Positions 1 to 5,747 of a stretch of DNA of 37,685 nucleotides are shown in pieces; position 1 is the first letter of the stretch; each line of letters opens with the position of its first letter. A program made the translations under genes and the position numbers. Where the stretch lies: NCBI GenBank assembly GCA_016840685.1, contig JAEORX010000015.1:1-37685 (forward strand). Direction: 5' to 3'. The stretch is from Candidatus Thorarchaeota archaeon. Its GTDB lineage: Archaea > Asgardarchaeota > Thorarchaeia > Thorarchaeales > Thorarchaeaceae. Below the pieces are notes generated by a model, which saw only the letters and a list, made by a program, of their open reading frames with translations, was not told the origin of the DNA and searched no databases.

Positions 1-413
1 TAGGAGCAAGCTGGGTTTTCGAGAATCATATTGGAACCCTCCAAGCACTCAAACAGATGACCAAATCAGGAGGTCTTGTAATTGTTGGTGAACCATTTTG
101 GTTGAAAGAACCTGAAGCTGATTATCTTGAAGCAATTGGTATGACCCGTGATTCATTTGGATTGCATGAGGAGAATGTGTATCAAGGTGAAAAGATGGGA
201 CTTACCTGTCTCTATACACTTGTTTCTAACAAGGATGATTGGGACCACTATGAAACTCTTCAATGGTGGGCTGTTGATAGATATATTCAGTCACATAGTG
301 ATGACCCAGACAATCAGGAGCTTATTGAGAAAACAAAGATTGCGAAAGAGAATTATCTAAAGTGGGGAAGAGACACATTCAATTGGGGAATTTACATCTT
401 TAGAAATCCGTAG
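1..413 (+). CDS. Class I SAM-dependent methyltransferase, 3' part only
   Basis: The reading frame is open to the left edge of the window (first full codon at position 3), so the start and the SAM-binding N-terminal half lie outside. The visible part begins GASWVFENHIGTL and runs through a beta-strand motif GGLVIVGEPFW, followed by an acidic helical C-terminus ending IYIFRNP. This layout matches the C-terminal half of stand-alone class I methyltransferases, where the motif GGxxxxGEPFW/YW follows the last part of the Rossmann core. The substrate cannot be told. The stop codon lies only 5 nt from the 3' CCA end of the oppositely oriented tRNA-Lys gene, so the two transcripts converge. Family call is from remembered similarity; the missing N-terminus keeps the certainty moderate. 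Confidence 0.7.
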   Translation, partial: GASWVFENHIGTLQALKQMTKSGGLVIVGEPFWLKEPEADYLEAIGMTRDSFGLHEENVYQGEKMGLTCLYTLVSNKDDWDHYETLQWWAVDRYIQSHSDDPDNQELIEKTKIAKENYLKWGRDTFNWGIYIFRNP

Positions 414-418
414 ATAGA

Positions 419-554
419 TGGCGGGCCAGGAGGGATTTTTGGGCGACCTGCTGGAAGTCAGCATGCCAGAACCCTCGACCAACAAGTTAAGAGCTTCAAC
501 ACATCAGAGGAGTTCTGAGTGTACTGTCGCTATACCTGGCTTAGCCACTGGCCC
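419..554 (-). tRNA. tRNA-Lys (anticodon CUU) with two non-canonical introns
   Basis: Reading the minus strand from 554, the acceptor strand GGGCCAG pairs perfectly with CTGGCCC (429-423), followed by discriminator G (422) and an encoded CCA (421-419). The D arm is GCTA/TAGC with a nine-base loop AGCCAGGTA. The anticodon arm is ACAG+G / CTTGT with loop CTCTTAA (493-487), anticodon CTT. The variable loop is TGGTC and the T arm GAGGG/CCCTC with loop TTC+AAAT. Two stretches interrupt this: intron 1 at 523-495 (29 nt, between bases 30 and 31) and intron 2 at 468-439 (30 nt, in the T loop between 56 and 57). Removing both leaves a 74-nt cloverleaf with U8, A14, G18G19, A21, G15-C48, T54T55C56 and A58 all in place. 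Intron 1 folds as helix CGAC/GTTG with bulges AG|T and AA|G; intron 2 as helix GGGT/GCCC with bulges TC|T and AA|A. A 65-codon open frame on the plus strand across this gene is spurious. Confidence 0.93.
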
Positions 555-579
555 ACAAAACGCCATCTGTCCGTCTTCA

Positions 580-587
580 GTTTATAG
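580..587 (-). promoter_or_regulatory. TATA box of the tRNA-Lys gene
   Basis: On the minus strand the sequence reads CTATAAAC, centred about 30 nt upstream of the first base of the tRNA (554), the usual spacing for an archaeal TATA element with a start a few bases before the mature 5' end. The remaining 588-728 stretch up to the next gene shows nothing else that I recognise beyond a purine-rich leader. Confidence 0.7.
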
Positions 588-728
588 AGATTGCGGTGAG
601 ATGAGTTGGTTGTAAATCTTCTTCTTCGATAAGGAACAAGATTTCACCCCATGTTCTAAGAAGGATATTCATTTACACACTTTAGTCAGTAGAATGATAA
701 GATGTAAAACGAAAGACTGTGCATATGG

Positions 729-1724
729 ATGGAGGCGATTGTGGTGGCTAGATCCATCCTCGTCAAGGGTGCAATTGTAGTTATCCTCTCTGGACTCATC
801 ATCTCGGTTGGAGTTCTATTCTTCCTAGGTACACAAGAACAACCTACAGATCTAAGCAATGTGGATGTTGCGTACTACAATGGAAACGGGGCGTGGGAAA
901 TATCAGAAACAATTCTATCGAATATGACTAAATGGATGGGCTACTCTTTCACTACAGTGAGGGGTCAGGATATCAAAGACGGATGCCTTGACGATTATGA
1001 TTTGCTAATGTGGCCAGGAGGCCACTATCCAGCATATTGGGAGGAAGTGGGTCTTGAAGGGAAAGCAGAGATACAGGAATTTGTTTCTAGAGGTGGTGGA
1101 TATCTGGGAATTTGCGCTGGGGCGTACTATGCTGCAGACTACATGGTCTGGATGGATGATGCTGCTTATCCGCCACCCGATTATAAGGTGGAGGGGGACG
1201 AATTGAACCTGGACCTTTTTCCAGGAGTGGCCTATGGACCTATTTTCGAAATCGCAGATCGCGATACTACCTATTGGGCGATGGTTGAGATTAATATTGT
1301 CGACCAGACTCATCCCATTACTCAATCGATGCCAAACCCGATGACAATGTTCTACTATGGCGGACCCTATCTTGAAACATATGATGATGCCAACGTTTCG
1401 ATTCTGGGGAGGTATGATATCACAGGAACACCAGCAATCGTAGCCTGTTCGTACGGAGAAGGTCGAGTGTTTCTTATTGGTCCCCATGGCGAGATAGAGG
1501 AGGGTGGCAATCGGGACGGCTGGTCGTTCCCGGACATTCCAGAACCGGATGATGTGGAGTCAGATTGGCCATTGTACAGAAATGCAGTTAGATGGCTGTG
1601 CAAGATAGATTCCCCCAGTTCCTTTGCAACTGGGCTTGTTGGTTCATTCGAGATACAAGTCAATACAAATAGAGTATCACATTTCAACGAACGAATCCAA
1701 TATTTCCTTTCATCGAGATGGTGA
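729..1724 (+). CDS. Membrane-anchored GATase1-like protein (biotin-protein-ligase N-terminal type)
   Basis: The 331-residue protein has an uncleaved N-terminal hydrophobic helix (about residues 11-34), placing the rest outside the membrane. The soluble part resembles the class I glutamine-amidotransferase-like fold found at the N-terminus of some eukaryotic biotin protein ligases (BPL_N family). It has LLMWPGGHYP, then a nucleophile-elbow motif GGGYLGICAGAYYA with Cys129, and late glycine-rich strands including VFLIGPHGE. An intact Cys elbow is visible, but a clear catalytic His-Glu pair is not obvious, so enzymatic activity is uncertain. Start: ATG 729 gives the full membrane anchor; a GTG a few codons later is also possible. 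It stands alone, facing away from the tRNA. Function unknown. Confidence 0.7.
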   Translation: MEAIVVARSILVKGAIVVILSGLIISVGVLFFLGTQEQPTDLSNVDVAYYNGNGAWEISETILSNMTKWMGYSFTTVRGQDIKDGCLDDYDLLMWPGGHYPAYWEEVGLEGKAEIQEFVSRGGGYLGICAGAYYAADYMVWMDDAAYPPPDYKVEGDELNLDLFPGVAYGPIFEIADRDTTYWAMVEINIVDQTHPITQSMPNPMTMFYYGGPYLETYDDANVSILGRYDITGTPAIVACSYGEGRVFLIGPHGEIEEGGNRDGWSFPDIPEPDDVESDWPLYRNAVRWLCKIDSPSSFATGLVGSFEIQVNTNRVSHFNERIQYFLSSRW

Positions 1725-1779
1725 GTAGACGTACAGCTCAACAGCAAGTTTTGCCTGTGAATCTGTCACTTTTCAAAGA

Positions 1780-2241
1780 TTAGGTTCCACGAAATTTCTT
1801 TCGGGTTTCTTGGAATCTTGTCAGAGGACGATAGTGGAAGACATAAGTTAGAACTAGGAATATCAACCACATCAAGAATGCCGCAAGTGCCAGTGACGTG
1901 AGATTCAGAAGTAGAAACATCAGGATAATGACGATACCAATCATCTGATACAACGTAAATGCCAAGATTGTAGCATTTCGGGCCGGTTTCGTCATAGGGG
2001 GGACTCGATCACAGAAATACAAAACGAACCAGAAGCTCCAACCAATAATGAAGAGGAGAAGATCAAAGATGAGAGCTAGAACAAAAAGGATTACTTGGGC
2101 AATAACCAAAGTAGGGTCTGGAAGTTGTGTCACTAGTAATGTAATGACTGTGAATGTGAAGACAGCAAATAGAGAGGCGATGTTGACACCACTTATCAAA
2201 AATGAGATGTAGTTTGAGTAGTCTTTCTTTTCGATTGTCAT
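1780..2241 (-). CDS. Four-helix membrane protein, unknown function
   Basis: The 153-residue protein is made almost entirely of four hydrophobic stretches at about residues 13-38, 44-74, 88-112 and 116-136, joined by short polar loops, with a basic C-terminal tail (TRFQETRKKFRGT). It carries no charged or metal-binding motif in the membrane segments and I do not recognise a family. It is transcribed towards the GATase-like gene, with 55 nt between the two stops, and diverges from the ferredoxin gene at 2389. The leader at 2242-2388 contains a short inverted repeat (ATACC...GGTAT at about 2248-2265) whose role is unclear. Confidence 0.6.
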   Translation of the reverse strand: MTIEKKDYSNYISFLISGVNIASLFAVFTFTVITLLVTQLPDPTLVIAQVILFVLALIFDLLLFIIGWSFWFVLYFCDRVPPMTKPARNATILAFTLYQMIGIVIILMFLLLNLTSLALAAFLMWLIFLVLTYVFHYRPLTRFQETRKKFRGT

Positions 2242-2388
2242 TTACGAATACCAATGTTTCGGTATCCAAACTTCAAAATAAAACCTATGCACCAAATTAG
2301 CTAGTTTGATATTTTGTAGATTGATTTTTCAGATGGTTTTTTCAAGTGCTTACACGCACAGCTGAAGGTTGTTAGAGGAGAGATTGGA

Positions 2389-3474
2389 ATGGGTGATGAT
2401 GTCTACAGAGCACTACAAAAACATCTAGATAGCATGCCAGCTGGGTTTCCAGCCACAGAGTCAGGAGTTGAGATTAGGATTCTGAAGCAGTTGTTTTCCC
2501 AAGAAGAGGCAAAATTGGCAACCCAGCTGAAATACTCTACATATCCGAACGAGTCCTTGGAGAGTATCTTTGATCGTCTGAAGGAAACGGGTTTCTCTAT
2601 AGAGGAGCTGGAAGAAAGACTTGATACTATGGCAAGCAAGGGACTGATTCACTCTAAATATGATGAAAGAACGAAGTTCTTTAGCGGTGCCCAGTGGGTT
2701 GTGGGTATCTATGAGTTTCAAGTGAATAAACTGACCAAGGAGCTATCAGAGGATATCCATCAGTATAACAACGAGGCTTTTGGGTGGAACTTGTTCAGTG
2801 CAAAACCGACTCAATTGAGAGTTATCCCCATTGGGAAGAGTATCAAGCCAGAAGATGGAGTCGCAAGCTATGACGATTTTCGTGCGATGTTTTCCACAAT
2901 TGATGGACCATTCATGGTTACAAGTTGTATCTGTCGCCAACGGAAGGATCTTGCAGAATCTCCATGTAAGGTCACTGAGAGAGAAGAAACCTGCATTGCA
3001 TTTGGGACCTTTGCACAAATGTACATTGACCAAGGATGGGGTCGCGAAATAAGCAGAGAGGAACTGCTTGAGATAATCGAGATGAATGAACGAGAGGGTC
3101 TGGTCCTGCAGCCTAGCAACTCACAGAAGCCTGAGTTCATCTGTTCATGTTGTGGTTGTTGTTGTGGCCTTCTCCGTGGAAAGGGGGCGATGTCGAAACC
3201 TGTTGATTTCTTTTCAACAAACTATCACTCTGCAGTCAATCTTGACCTATGCACGTCTTGTGGGACATGTGTGGATCTCTGTCAGATGAAGGCGTTGAGT
3301 TTCCAAGATGATGTTCTGACCATTGATTTGGATAGATGTATAGGATGCGGAGTCTGTGTTGCAAATTGTCCCGAGGGGGCAATGGGTCTACATAAGCGTG
3401 ACAAAGAGCTAGTTCCACCTAAAACAATGGAGGAAACATTCTCACGCATTGCTGACAGCAAGACTCGAATGTGA
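2389..3474 (+). CDS. Winged-helix / cysteine-rich / 2x[4Fe-4S] ferredoxin protein
   Basis: The 361-residue protein has three parts. Residues 27-110 look like a winged-helix unit. Residues 170-260 hold a cysteine-rich block: C180, C182, C193, C202, then the dense motif CSCCGCCCG (C252-C259). Residues 285-330 are a classical bacterial-type ferredoxin with C288/C291/C294/C298 and C317/C320/C323/C327, enough for two [4Fe-4S] clusters. Proteins with this CCxCCC block plus ferredoxin occur in anaerobic bacteria and archaea without an assigned reaction. An electron-transfer or redox-sensing role is inference; the winged helix could mean DNA or protein binding. ATG 2389 has a Shine-Dalgarno sequence (GAGGAGA) about 8 nt upstream. 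It converges with the RraA-like gene. Confidence 0.75.
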   Translation: MGDDVYRALQKHLDSMPAGFPATESGVEIRILKQLFSQEEAKLATQLKYSTYPNESLESIFDRLKETGFSIEELEERLDTMASKGLIHSKYDERTKFFSGAQWVVGIYEFQVNKLTKELSEDIHQYNNEAFGWNLFSAKPTQLRVIPIGKSIKPEDGVASYDDFRAMFSTIDGPFMVTSCICRQRKDLAESPCKVTEREETCIAFGTFAQMYIDQGWGREISREELLEIIEMNEREGLVLQPSNSQKPEFICSCCGCCCGLLRGKGAMSKPVDFFSTNYHSAVNLDLCTSCGTCVDLCQMKALSFQDDVLTIDLDRCIGCGVCVANCPEGAMGLHKRDKELVPPKTMEETFSRIADSKTRM

Positions 3475-4424: not shown

Positions 4425-5747
4425 TTGAGCGAGCATAAGAAACTATACGATTCAGTCTTTAATTTGATAGAGCATCATGACAAATGGATGCAGACCACAC
4501 TCAACCTAATAGCTAGTGAGAACGTCAGTTCTCCAGCAGTGCGCTCTGCAATAGTCTGTGACTTTAGAGATCGGTATGCAGAGGGATGGCCGGGAGAACG
4601 GGTTTACGCAGGTTGTAAGTACATAGATGAGGTGGAACTCATCACAATAGACCTTGCAAAGAAGTTGTTCAATGCAGAGTTTGCCGATGTCAGACCAATC
4701 TCAGGGGTGGTGGCAAACCTTGCCATGTACACAGCAGCCATGGAACCGATGGAGAGAATGATGGCTCTGTCCATCGCTCATGGGGGGCATATCTCTCATG
4801 CACGGAAAGATCTTGGGGGGACTGCTGGCCAGATACGGGGACACAAAGTACGAAACTGGGTCTTCGATGACACAGAGTTCAACATCGATGTTGATGCCAG
4901 CATGAAACTCATCAGAGACCTTCAGGAGAAGGGTGATGAGATAAAGTTCCTCCTCTTTGGAGGAAGTGTGTTTCCGTTCCCACATCCTGTCAAGGAGTTT
5001 CGGGAGATAGCAGATGAGTATGGGATGACCATCGGCTATGACTCGGCGCATGTCTCGGGGCTTATCGCTGCTGGGTTTTTCCAGGACCCACTGAGGGAGG
5101 GCGCAGACATGATGACCGCATCCACCCATAAGACAATGCCTGGTCCGCAACATGGAATCATATTAGCAAAAGAGATGTTCGCTGATGCAATCAAGAGAGC
5201 ATCATTTCCAGGTCTCTTGAGCAACCACCATTTACACAATGTGGCGGGTCTTGCAGTTGTCCTTGCTGAGATGACAGAGTTTGGAGTCGACTATAGTAAA
5301 CAGATAATGAAGAACGCGAAGGCATTGGCTCAGTCACTCCACGAGAGAGGATGGCAGGTTATAGCTGAACATAAGGGCTTTACAGAGTCGCATGTCATCT
5401 TGGTTGATGTCACTGAAACACCCTTGAAGGATGGAGCCACAGTTGAAGAAACCCTGGAGGATGCAAACATTGTGCTCAACCGAAATCTCTTGCCTTGGGA
5501 CAAGAAGAGAGGTCGTGACTATAGAACTCCTGGTGGTATCCGCCTGGGTACAAGCGAACTGACCAGACTCGGTATGAAGGAGTCTGAGATGGACACTGTT
5601 GCAGAGTTCATGACTCGAGTTGTCATGAGGGGTGAGGATTTCAAGAAGATAGCCGAAGAGGTTGGAGAGTTTCGCAAGGACTATCAGAAGGTGTACTATG
5701 CATTCGACACAGAAACCCCTGCTTATGCACATTTGAGATTTATGTAG
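4425..5747 (+). CDS. glyA: Serine hydroxymethyltransferase
   Basis: This PLP enzyme interconverts serine and glycine with transfer of a one-carbon unit to a reduced folate or methanopterin. The 440-residue protein shows LNLIASENV near the N-terminus, the PLP-ring aspartate in DSAHV (D206), and the Schiff-base lysine in STHKTMPGPQ (K236, with the family's S-T-x-H-K-T pattern). The C-terminal RTPGGIRLGTSELTRLGM holds the carboxylate-binding arginine. Its length and the wording of several blocks fit the archaeal branch of GlyA. It starts with TTG, supported by a strong Shine-Dalgarno sequence. It pairs functionally with GcvT and GcvH 7-9 kb away, and the MazG-like gene follows 36 nt downstream, probably in the same transcript. 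Confidence 0.95.
   Translation: MSEHKKLYDSVFNLIEHHDKWMQTTLNLIASENVSSPAVRSAIVCDFRDRYAEGWPGERVYAGCKYIDEVELITIDLAKKLFNAEFADVRPISGVVANLAMYTAAMEPMERMMALSIAHGGHISHARKDLGGTAGQIRGHKVRNWVFDDTEFNIDVDASMKLIRDLQEKGDEIKFLLFGGSVFPFPHPVKEFREIADEYGMTIGYDSAHVSGLIAAGFFQDPLREGADMMTASTHKTMPGPQHGIILAKEMFADAIKRASFPGLLSNHHLHNVAGLAVVLAEMTEFGVDYSKQIMKNAKALAQSLHERGWQVIAEHKGFTESHVILVDVTETPLKDGATVEETLEDANIVLNRNLLPWDKKRGRDYRTPGGIRLGTSELTRLGMKESEMDTVAEFMTRVVMRGEDFKKIAEEVGEFRKDYQKVYYAFDTETPAYAHLRFM

What the first reader, a model, noticed from the sequence alone, without database searches (positions are those of the whole stretch)
419..554. tRNA-Lys(CUU) gene with two introns at non-canonical positions 30/31 and 56/57
Removing 523-495 and 468-439 (minus strand) leaves a complete 74-nt tRNA with perfect acceptor and T stems and all tertiary bases in place. 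Each removed piece folds into a 4-bp central helix flanked by 3-nt bulges with the cut after the second bulge base: intron 1 CGAC/GTTG, cuts AG|T and AA|G; intron 2 GGGT/GCCC, cuts TC|T and AA|A. Each also has an inner hairpin (TCAGA/TCTGA and TGCTG/CAGCA). Known knowledge: multiple non-canonical tRNA introns are best described in Thermoproteales; I recall no well-known case of this pair in an Asgard tRNA-Lys. A standard tRNA scan could miss this gene because the T loop is broken.
Basis: partly seen in the sequence, partly recalled or inferred. Interest (0 to 1): 0.85.

Follow-up and report, generated by a model that had tools for sequence, protein, structure and literature searches.

The report
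Double-intron lysine tRNA anchoring gene cassettes
In a Thorarchaeal (Asgard) genome a lysine tRNA gene is interrupted by two small removable introns, one inside the T loop, and in its relatives the last 20 bases of this tRNA are copied again and again downstream with one gene between copies, so one locus records both tRNA-intron turnover and gene insertion.

Summary
Confirmed. Window 554-419 (-) is a tRNA-Lys(CUU) gene with introns at 30/31 (523-495, 29 nt) and 56/57 (468-439, 30 nt). Standard scans miss it; the spliced sequence is a complete tRNA-Lys(ctt). Relatives supply exact empty sites for both introns, an intronless orthologue, and strong covariation in intron 2. The genome has a two-subunit splicing endonuclease (catalytic alpha plus His-less beta) and RtcB. 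The host is a Thorarchaeote. Abundant non-canonical introns were already reported in other Asgard lineages (PMC11291895), so the introns are a new example of a known kind. Relatives carry zero to four introns at seven positions in this one gene.

The surroundings are more surprising. Exon 3 (20 nt, starting exactly at the intron-2 3' splice site) recurs in direct orientation downstream of tRNA-Lys in many relatives and on the window's continuation contig. The 44 intervals measured have a median of 0.8 kb; 41 hold at most one ORF of 80 aa or more. Similar single-gene units follow other tRNAs in this genome but hardly occur in two sampled relatives. No tyrosine or serine recombinase or Cas1 was detected in the host genome. 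The inserting enzyme, and any causal link between T-arm introns and insertion, remain unproven.

The parts
524..554 (-). tRNA-Lys(CUU) exon 1 (positions 1-30)
   Evidence: identical 31 nt in many relatives
495..523 (-). Intron 1 at 30/31, 29 nt, BHB CGAC/GTTG
   Evidence: Exact empty site in G004 (L071) and intronless G020 (L087); similar 28-30-nt introns at 30/31 in 15 genomes
469..494 (-). Exon 2 (positions 31-56), anticodon CUU at 34-36
439..468 (-). Intron 2 at 56/57 (T loop), 30 nt, BHB GGGT/GCCC
   Evidence: Exact empty site in G034 (L065) and G008 (L075); covariation 175/182 cells, 0/10000 shuffles
419..438 (-). Exon 3 (positions 57-73 + CCA), 20 nt AAATCCCTCCTGGCCCGCCA; the unit repeated downstream in cassette arrays
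   Evidence: repeats on continuation contig G000:C168 at 532, 1359, 1951, 2542, 3006
580..587 (-). Promoter: CTATAAAC TATA box about 32 nt upstream of the tRNA, preceded by CACCGCAATCT
   Evidence: TATA-like element about 29-35 nt upstream in 22 of 23 aligned full-length genes
1..418 (.). First downstream cassette (truncated by the contig end): C-terminal part of a SAM-dependent methyltransferase, ORF 57-413 (+), stop codon 5 bp from the tRNA 3' end
   Evidence: 81% identical DNA follows a tRNA 3' repeat at C168:532; homologous cassettes in G021, G022, G026 are bounded by the repeats
4425..5747 (+). Glycine hydroxymethyltransferase-like gene, conserved neighbour on the 5' side of tRNA-Lys
   Evidence: Family F0 has 16 members in the 19 neighbourhoods compared

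Best explanation
This is a functional tRNA-Lys(CUU) gene of a Thorarchaeote, the only one found in the genome. Its precursor is transcribed from a conserved TATA-box promoter. The two BHB introns are cut out by a two-subunit (alpha-beta)2-type EndA whose alpha subunit carries the Tyr/His/Lys triad and a KPK loop like the crenarchaeal specificity loop, and the exons are joined by RtcB. Intron 2 pairs with strands of the T arm, so it must be removed before the T arm can form. The same gene is an insertion hot spot: single-gene cassettes have been inserted at its 3' exon, each leaving a 20-23-nt copy of the tRNA 3' end at its far end, so the tRNA stays intact and older units lie further away. T-arm introns at this spot turn over quickly (53/54, 56/57, 58/59 in one genus). 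Shown: anatomy, boundaries, conservation, covariation, cassettes bounded by the repeats. Inferred: transcription, splicing in vivo, enzyme roles, and the direction and enzyme of cassette insertion.
For: Spliced form is tRNA-Lys(ctt), unspliced forms are missed. Empty sites and intronless orthologue. Covariation in intron 2. Conserved promoter. EndA: the 187-aa protein best matches 3p1z and 3ajv, with VYEHGPGKDHAPF...VRKKF and IRKPKSSVF aligned to VEKPRGADF; the 233-aa protein lacks the His. RtcB present. Only tRNA-Lys(UUU) otherwise found. Repeats: downstream, forward orientation only, none reversed, shuffled-pattern null 0.00, reversed-pattern control mostly 0 per genome. Cassettes aligned across genomes start after CCA and end at the repeat. 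44 cassettes, median 807 bp, 41 with at most one ORF of 80 aa or more, 25 of 44 repeats preceded by TTC. Syntenic flanks.
Against: No RNA data, so splicing is inferred. The genome is a draft MAG (93.8% complete, 7% contamination), so a second tRNA-Lys(CUU) or a recombinase could be missing; contig C168 begins with an identical 58-nt 3' part of the gene. Intron 1 has only a weak outer helix (relaxed BHB). For the cassettes, no enzyme, circular intermediate or excised state was seen.
Confidence: 0.9

Rival explanations
1. A decaying pseudogene or chance resemblance: the two removed pieces are random inserts in a dead tRNA copy.
For: tRNA fragments are common around this locus in relatives; the gene is missed by standard scans.
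Against: Perfect acceptor and T stems, conserved promoter, exact empty sites, compensatory changes, no other tRNA-Lys(CUU) found. Real 5' fragments nearby lose the 3' half and several have eroded TATA boxes.
Confidence: 0.03
2. The T-arm introns are kept because they shield the tRNA gene from integration (hypothesis of Randau and Soell as cited in PMC3293823): intron 2 splits the TTC|AAATCCC core that the inserted units carry uninterrupted.
For: 25 of 44 right-hand repeats read TTC joined to AAATCCC, while the window gene has a 30-nt intron exactly there. Introns at three neighbouring T-arm positions in one genus suggest repeated gain. All 9 arrays in the 20 loci tested occur in genomes with a T-arm intron and none in the 6 without (Fisher p = 0.014, not corrected for ancestry).
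Against: Introns and arrays coexist, and some displaced copies carry an intron (L068:6384, L077:11588), so insertion was not fully blocked. The association is confounded by relatedness and by short downstream sequence in some of the six.
Confidence: 0.25
3. The introns arrive with the inserted elements: attachment sites with an intron replace the resident 3' part at each integration (model proposed for Caldiarchaeum in PMC3293823).
For: Displaced 3' ends in G030 and G022 carry a different T-arm intron from the resident gene (comparison made by reading the sequences). Repeats share host-specific variants (CCCGTC in G030, three perfect copies).
Against: Most displaced ends are intronless; intron 1, outside the repeat, also varies in presence and position.
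Confidence: 0.3
4. The repeats are remnants of ordinary integrase-bearing islands that lost everything except one gene.
For: tRNA 3' ends are classic integrase targets; some relatives have tyrosine recombinases (19 of 47 genomes).
Against: None detected in the host genome for PF00589, PF16795 or PF00239. Units nearly always hold one gene (41 of 44) and the same gene families recur at precise boundaries in different order.
Confidence: 0.3

Closest known systems
Multiple non-canonical BHB tRNA introns in Atabeyarchaeia and Freyarchaeia (PMC11291895)
   Same: Asgard archaea, introns away from 37/38, several per gene
   Different: Other Asgard lineages; no T-arm/insertion link in the passages read
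Thermoproteales multi-intron tRNAs (discussed in PMC8450103)
   Same: BHB introns at non-canonical positions, up to three per gene
   Different: Two relatives here reach four introns in tRNA-Lys(CUU) (L030, L031)
Caldiarchaeum tRNA-Thr locus (PMC3293823)
   Same: Intron gain, tRNA fragments as direct repeats, insertion at the tRNA
   Different: An insert with a putative recombinase there; serial one-gene units with no detected recombinase here
tRNA-targeted genomic islands (Islander, PMC4383910)
   Same: Displaced 3' tRNA end marks the far border, resident tRNA stays whole
   Different: No integrase inside; many small units in series
Integron gene-cassette arrays
   Same: Tandem single-gene units separated by a short recombination-like repeat
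   Different: Repeat is a tRNA 3' end, genes in both orientations, no tyrosine integrase found in the host genome
Casposons (PMC6614799)
   Same: A. boonei casposase uses a tRNA 3' end, needs the T-loop motif TCAAATC and duplicates the target
   Different: No Cas1 in the host genome, no terminal inverted repeats in the units

Membership tests
Archaeal BHB pre-tRNA introns | 4-bp central helix with two 3-nt bulges cut after the second base | tested here: met
   Sequence reading; both introns
Archaeal BHB pre-tRNA introns | Excision restores a complete cloverleaf | tested here: met
   ARAGORN tRNA-Lys(ctt)
Archaeal BHB pre-tRNA introns | Splicing endonuclease and ligase encoded | tested here: met
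Archaeal BHB pre-tRNA introns | Excision in vivo | not testable with these tools
   No RNA data
Integron cassette array | IntI-type tyrosine integrase | tested here: not met
   No PF00589 match in the host genome, a draft genome
Integron cassette array | Serial single-gene units separated by a shared site | tested here: met
Integron cassette array | Structured attC sites | not tested
   Repeat is the 20-nt tRNA 3' end; single-strand folding of the repeats was not analysed
tRNA-targeted integrative island | Direct repeat of tRNA 3' end at far border, resident tRNA intact | tested here: met
tRNA-targeted integrative island | Integrase gene in the element | tested here: not met
Casposon | Cas1-family casposase | tested here: not met
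   Absent in the host genome; in the genus only G026
Casposon | Terminal inverted repeats | tested here: not met
   End matches no better than mismatched pairs, mean 7.39 vs 7.49 of 12

The most novel reading that the evidence does not exclude
Some Thorarchaea have an undescribed gene-capture system in which single genes are inserted in series at tRNA 3' ends by an enzyme outside the recombinase families searched, with tRNA-Lys(CUU) as the main platform, and the fast turnover of T-arm introns in this tRNA is a consequence of, or a defence against, that insertion.
Probability: 0.4. Interest if true: 0.87.

Novelty: new variant of a known kind. Interest (0 to 1): 0.62.

Why it matters
Whether tRNA introns arise from, or protect against, integration has been argued without direct evidence (PMC3293823). 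Here one gene in one family shows zero to four introns at seven positions, and its displaced 3' ends preserve a record of insertions, with and without introns. That makes the question testable by comparative genomics and by simple enzyme assays. The cassette arrays may also reveal an unknown route of gene acquisition in Asgard archaea, and genomes scanned with standard tools can miss such tRNA genes.

Tried and rejected
Rfam and ARAGORN on the window gave nothing. Exact search for the repeat in viral contigs gave nothing. Tyrosine recombinase, archaeal integrase PF16795, serine recombinase and Cas1 as the inserting enzyme: not found in the host genome. Terminal inverted repeats in cassettes: none. 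Repeats as something every Thorarchaeal tRNA has: rejected by two sampled relatives, 1 clear case among 29 + 11 tRNAs (a second listed hit is a neighbouring tRNA-Arg), against about 8 of 27 in the host. Repeats as a contig-end artefact: rejected, arrays lie inside 62-kb and 85-kb contigs (G022, G027). My first splicing script had wrong length limits for two introns and was redone. Paper searches found no report of four introns in an archaeal tRNA or of such arrays; the library is limited to open-licence papers.

Full report
OBSERVATION. The minus strand from 554 to 419 holds a tRNA-Lys(CUU) in three exons. Removing 523-495 and 468-439 leaves 74 nt plus an encoded CCA. ARAGORN calls the joined sequence tRNA-Lys(ctt) and finds nothing in the unspliced form. 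ARAGORN on the window and Rfam on the window also find nothing, and a permissive Rfam search of 300-700 shows no tRNA.

IS IT MORE THAN CHANCE. Relatives answer this directly. A search of 47 family genomes with the unspliced gene matched 42. G034 has intron 1 but an uninterrupted T loop, GGGTTCAAATCCC. G008 likewise has intron 1 only, with an uninterrupted T loop. G004 has an uninterrupted GACAGGCTCTTAA and uses the usual 37/38 position instead. G020 has an intronless orthologue, 69.6 bits with the tRNA covariance model; two one-intron genes score 47.9 and 58.4 bits, and the three- and four-intron genes checked give no match. After removal of predicted introns, 24 of 25 genes give a 77-nt tRNA-Lys(ctt) including CCA; the exception (G015) has a T-arm intron my pattern did not cover. 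For intron 2 at 56/57 in 14 genomes, 175 of 182 base-pair cells are standard pairs. Dealing the 3' arms out at random gave a mean of 134.7, a maximum of 162, and no shuffle in 10,000 as high. This treats related genes as independent, but the changes on both sides of most inner-helix pairs are plain in the table.

INTRON TURNOVER. In this one gene the family shows introns at 22/23, 30/31, 37/38, 43/44, 53/54, 56/57 and 58/59, from none to four per gene. Two relatives, G038 and G039, have four. [quoted passage not shown] The 58/59 placing (G025) rests on its GTTC/GAAC helix, because the AA there lets the cut slide; my script labelled it 56/57.

MACHINERY. The host genome encodes two tRNA-intron endonuclease proteins. 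The 187-aa one best matches 3p1z and 3ajv, has the Tyr, His and Lys positions, and has KPK where those chains have KPR; from my own knowledge these are Aeropyrum pernix (alpha-beta)2 structures. PMC12397907 describes such a lysine loop in (alpha-beta)2 enzymes and links it to diverse introns. The 233-aa one lacks the histidine. This is the make-up of a broad-specificity (alpha-beta)2 enzyme; assembly into that form is inferred. RtcB ligase is present. A TATA-like box lies about 29-35 nt upstream in 22 of 23 aligned full-length genes. Splicing itself was not observed.

HOST AND PRIOR ART. Named relatives with the same exon 1 are nearly all Candidatus Thorarchaeota. PMC11291895 reports that 92-95% of tRNA genes in three Atabeyarchaeia and Freyarchaeia genomes have introns, often non-canonical, over half with several. 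So the introns are a new example of a known kind.

WHAT LIES BESIDE IT. Exon 3, AAATCCCTCCTGGCCCGCCA, starts exactly at the 3' splice site of intron 2. Copies of it lie downstream of tRNA-Lys in many relatives, in the same orientation. In 20 loci tested with each genome's own 3' end, 9 had one to five copies within 8 kb, none were reversed, and shuffled patterns gave none. The 44 intervals between copies have a median length of 807 bp. In 41 there is at most one ORF of 80 aa or more, the longest ORF covers a median of 86%, and genes point both ways. The same gene families recur in different genomes and in different order: nitronate monooxygenase, a CAAX-protease-like membrane protein, a methyltransferase, a 124-151-aa unknown, acetyltransferases. 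Alignments show that similarity between such units starts after CCA and stops at the repeat. I call them cassettes for their shape; movement has not been seen.

THE WINDOW'S OWN ARRAY. The window contig ends inside a methyltransferase unit 418 bp past the tRNA. Contig C168 begins with the identical last 58 nt of this tRNA gene, then carries five further copies with one main ORF between each, then genes that in relatives lie downstream of tRNA-Lys. C87 and C168 share that stretch and then part: one leads to the methyltransferase, the other to a different unit. This is what an assembly makes of a fork. The likeliest readings are that cells in the sample differ in their first cassette, or that there is a second copy of the tRNA; I cannot tell which.

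OTHER tRNAs. In the host genome about 8 of 27 other tRNA genes (Met, Ala-CGC, Phe, Ser-TGA, Pro, Leu-CAG, Leu-CAA and, more distant, Leu-GAG) have a forward copy of their own 3' end at 0.26 to 2.7 kb, and a Leu-TAG copy series lies elsewhere on its contig. Controls with the 5' end or the middle of the tRNA found no copies beyond weak cross-matches between tRNAs. In G034 (29 tRNAs) and G004 (11 tRNAs sampled) only one clear case was found. So the feature is unevenly spread among lineages.

ENZYME. The host genome gave no match to tyrosine recombinases, the archaeal integrase family PF16795, serine recombinases or Cas1. Many array-bearing relatives also lack detected tyrosine recombinases. The genome is 93.8% complete by markers, so absence is not proof. 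Cassette ends show no inverted repeats. The enzyme is unknown.

INTRONS AND INSERTION. In 25 of 44 cases the copy reads TTCAAATCCC without interruption, while the window gene has its intron between TTC and AAATCCC. Some displaced copies carry an intron, and in G030 and G022 it is of a different kind from the resident one. All nine arrays in the test set are in genomes with a T-arm intron and none in the six without (p = 0.014), but relatedness alone could produce this and several of the six have only 1-6 kb of downstream sequence. The data fit introns that arrive with insertions, or introns selected as a shield after them. They do not settle which, and they do not show that an intron stops insertion.

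VERDICT. Its class is known; its intron turnover is unusually clear; and its neighbourhood deserves study in its own right.

Noticed in passing
L030 and L031 (G038:C68, G039:C1): tRNA-Lys(CUU) genes with four introns (22/23, 30/31, 43/44, 56/57), 195 nt, both splicing in silico to tRNA-Lys(ctt); a cited paper gives three as the archaeal maximum.
   Followed up: partly
L062 (G000:C168) 39-3025: Series of six tRNA-Lys 3'-end copies with one main ORF between each pair, on the apparent continuation contig of the window's locus.
   Followed up: yes
L097, L098, L099, L104, L106, L108, L112, L113: Other host tRNAs (Met, Ala-CGC, Ser-TGA, Phe, Leu, Pro) also have forward copies of their 3' ends, mostly with single-gene units between.
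   Followed up: partly
L064 3997, 4771, 6043; L065 5726; L077 9434; L067 7627; L075 5832: 5' fragments of tRNA-Lys including its promoter region, mostly upstream of the full gene (inverted and downstream in L067 and L075); several have eroded TATA boxes. How they arose is unexplained.
   Followed up: partly
L110 5343-5446 (tRNA-Ala TGC): Another host tRNA that appears to have a T-arm intron and is not called by ARAGORN; no downstream copies found.
   Followed up: no
whole host genome: No match to tyrosine recombinases (PF00589), serine recombinases (PF00239) or Cas1 (PF01867) in a 3.2-Mb draft; unusual, since all 14 control genomes have PF00589.
   Followed up: partly
window 418-476 / contig C168 1-59: The two contigs share an identical 58-59-nt stretch of tRNA-Lys and then diverge into different cassettes, suggesting variation within the sampled population or a second tRNA copy.
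   Followed up: partly
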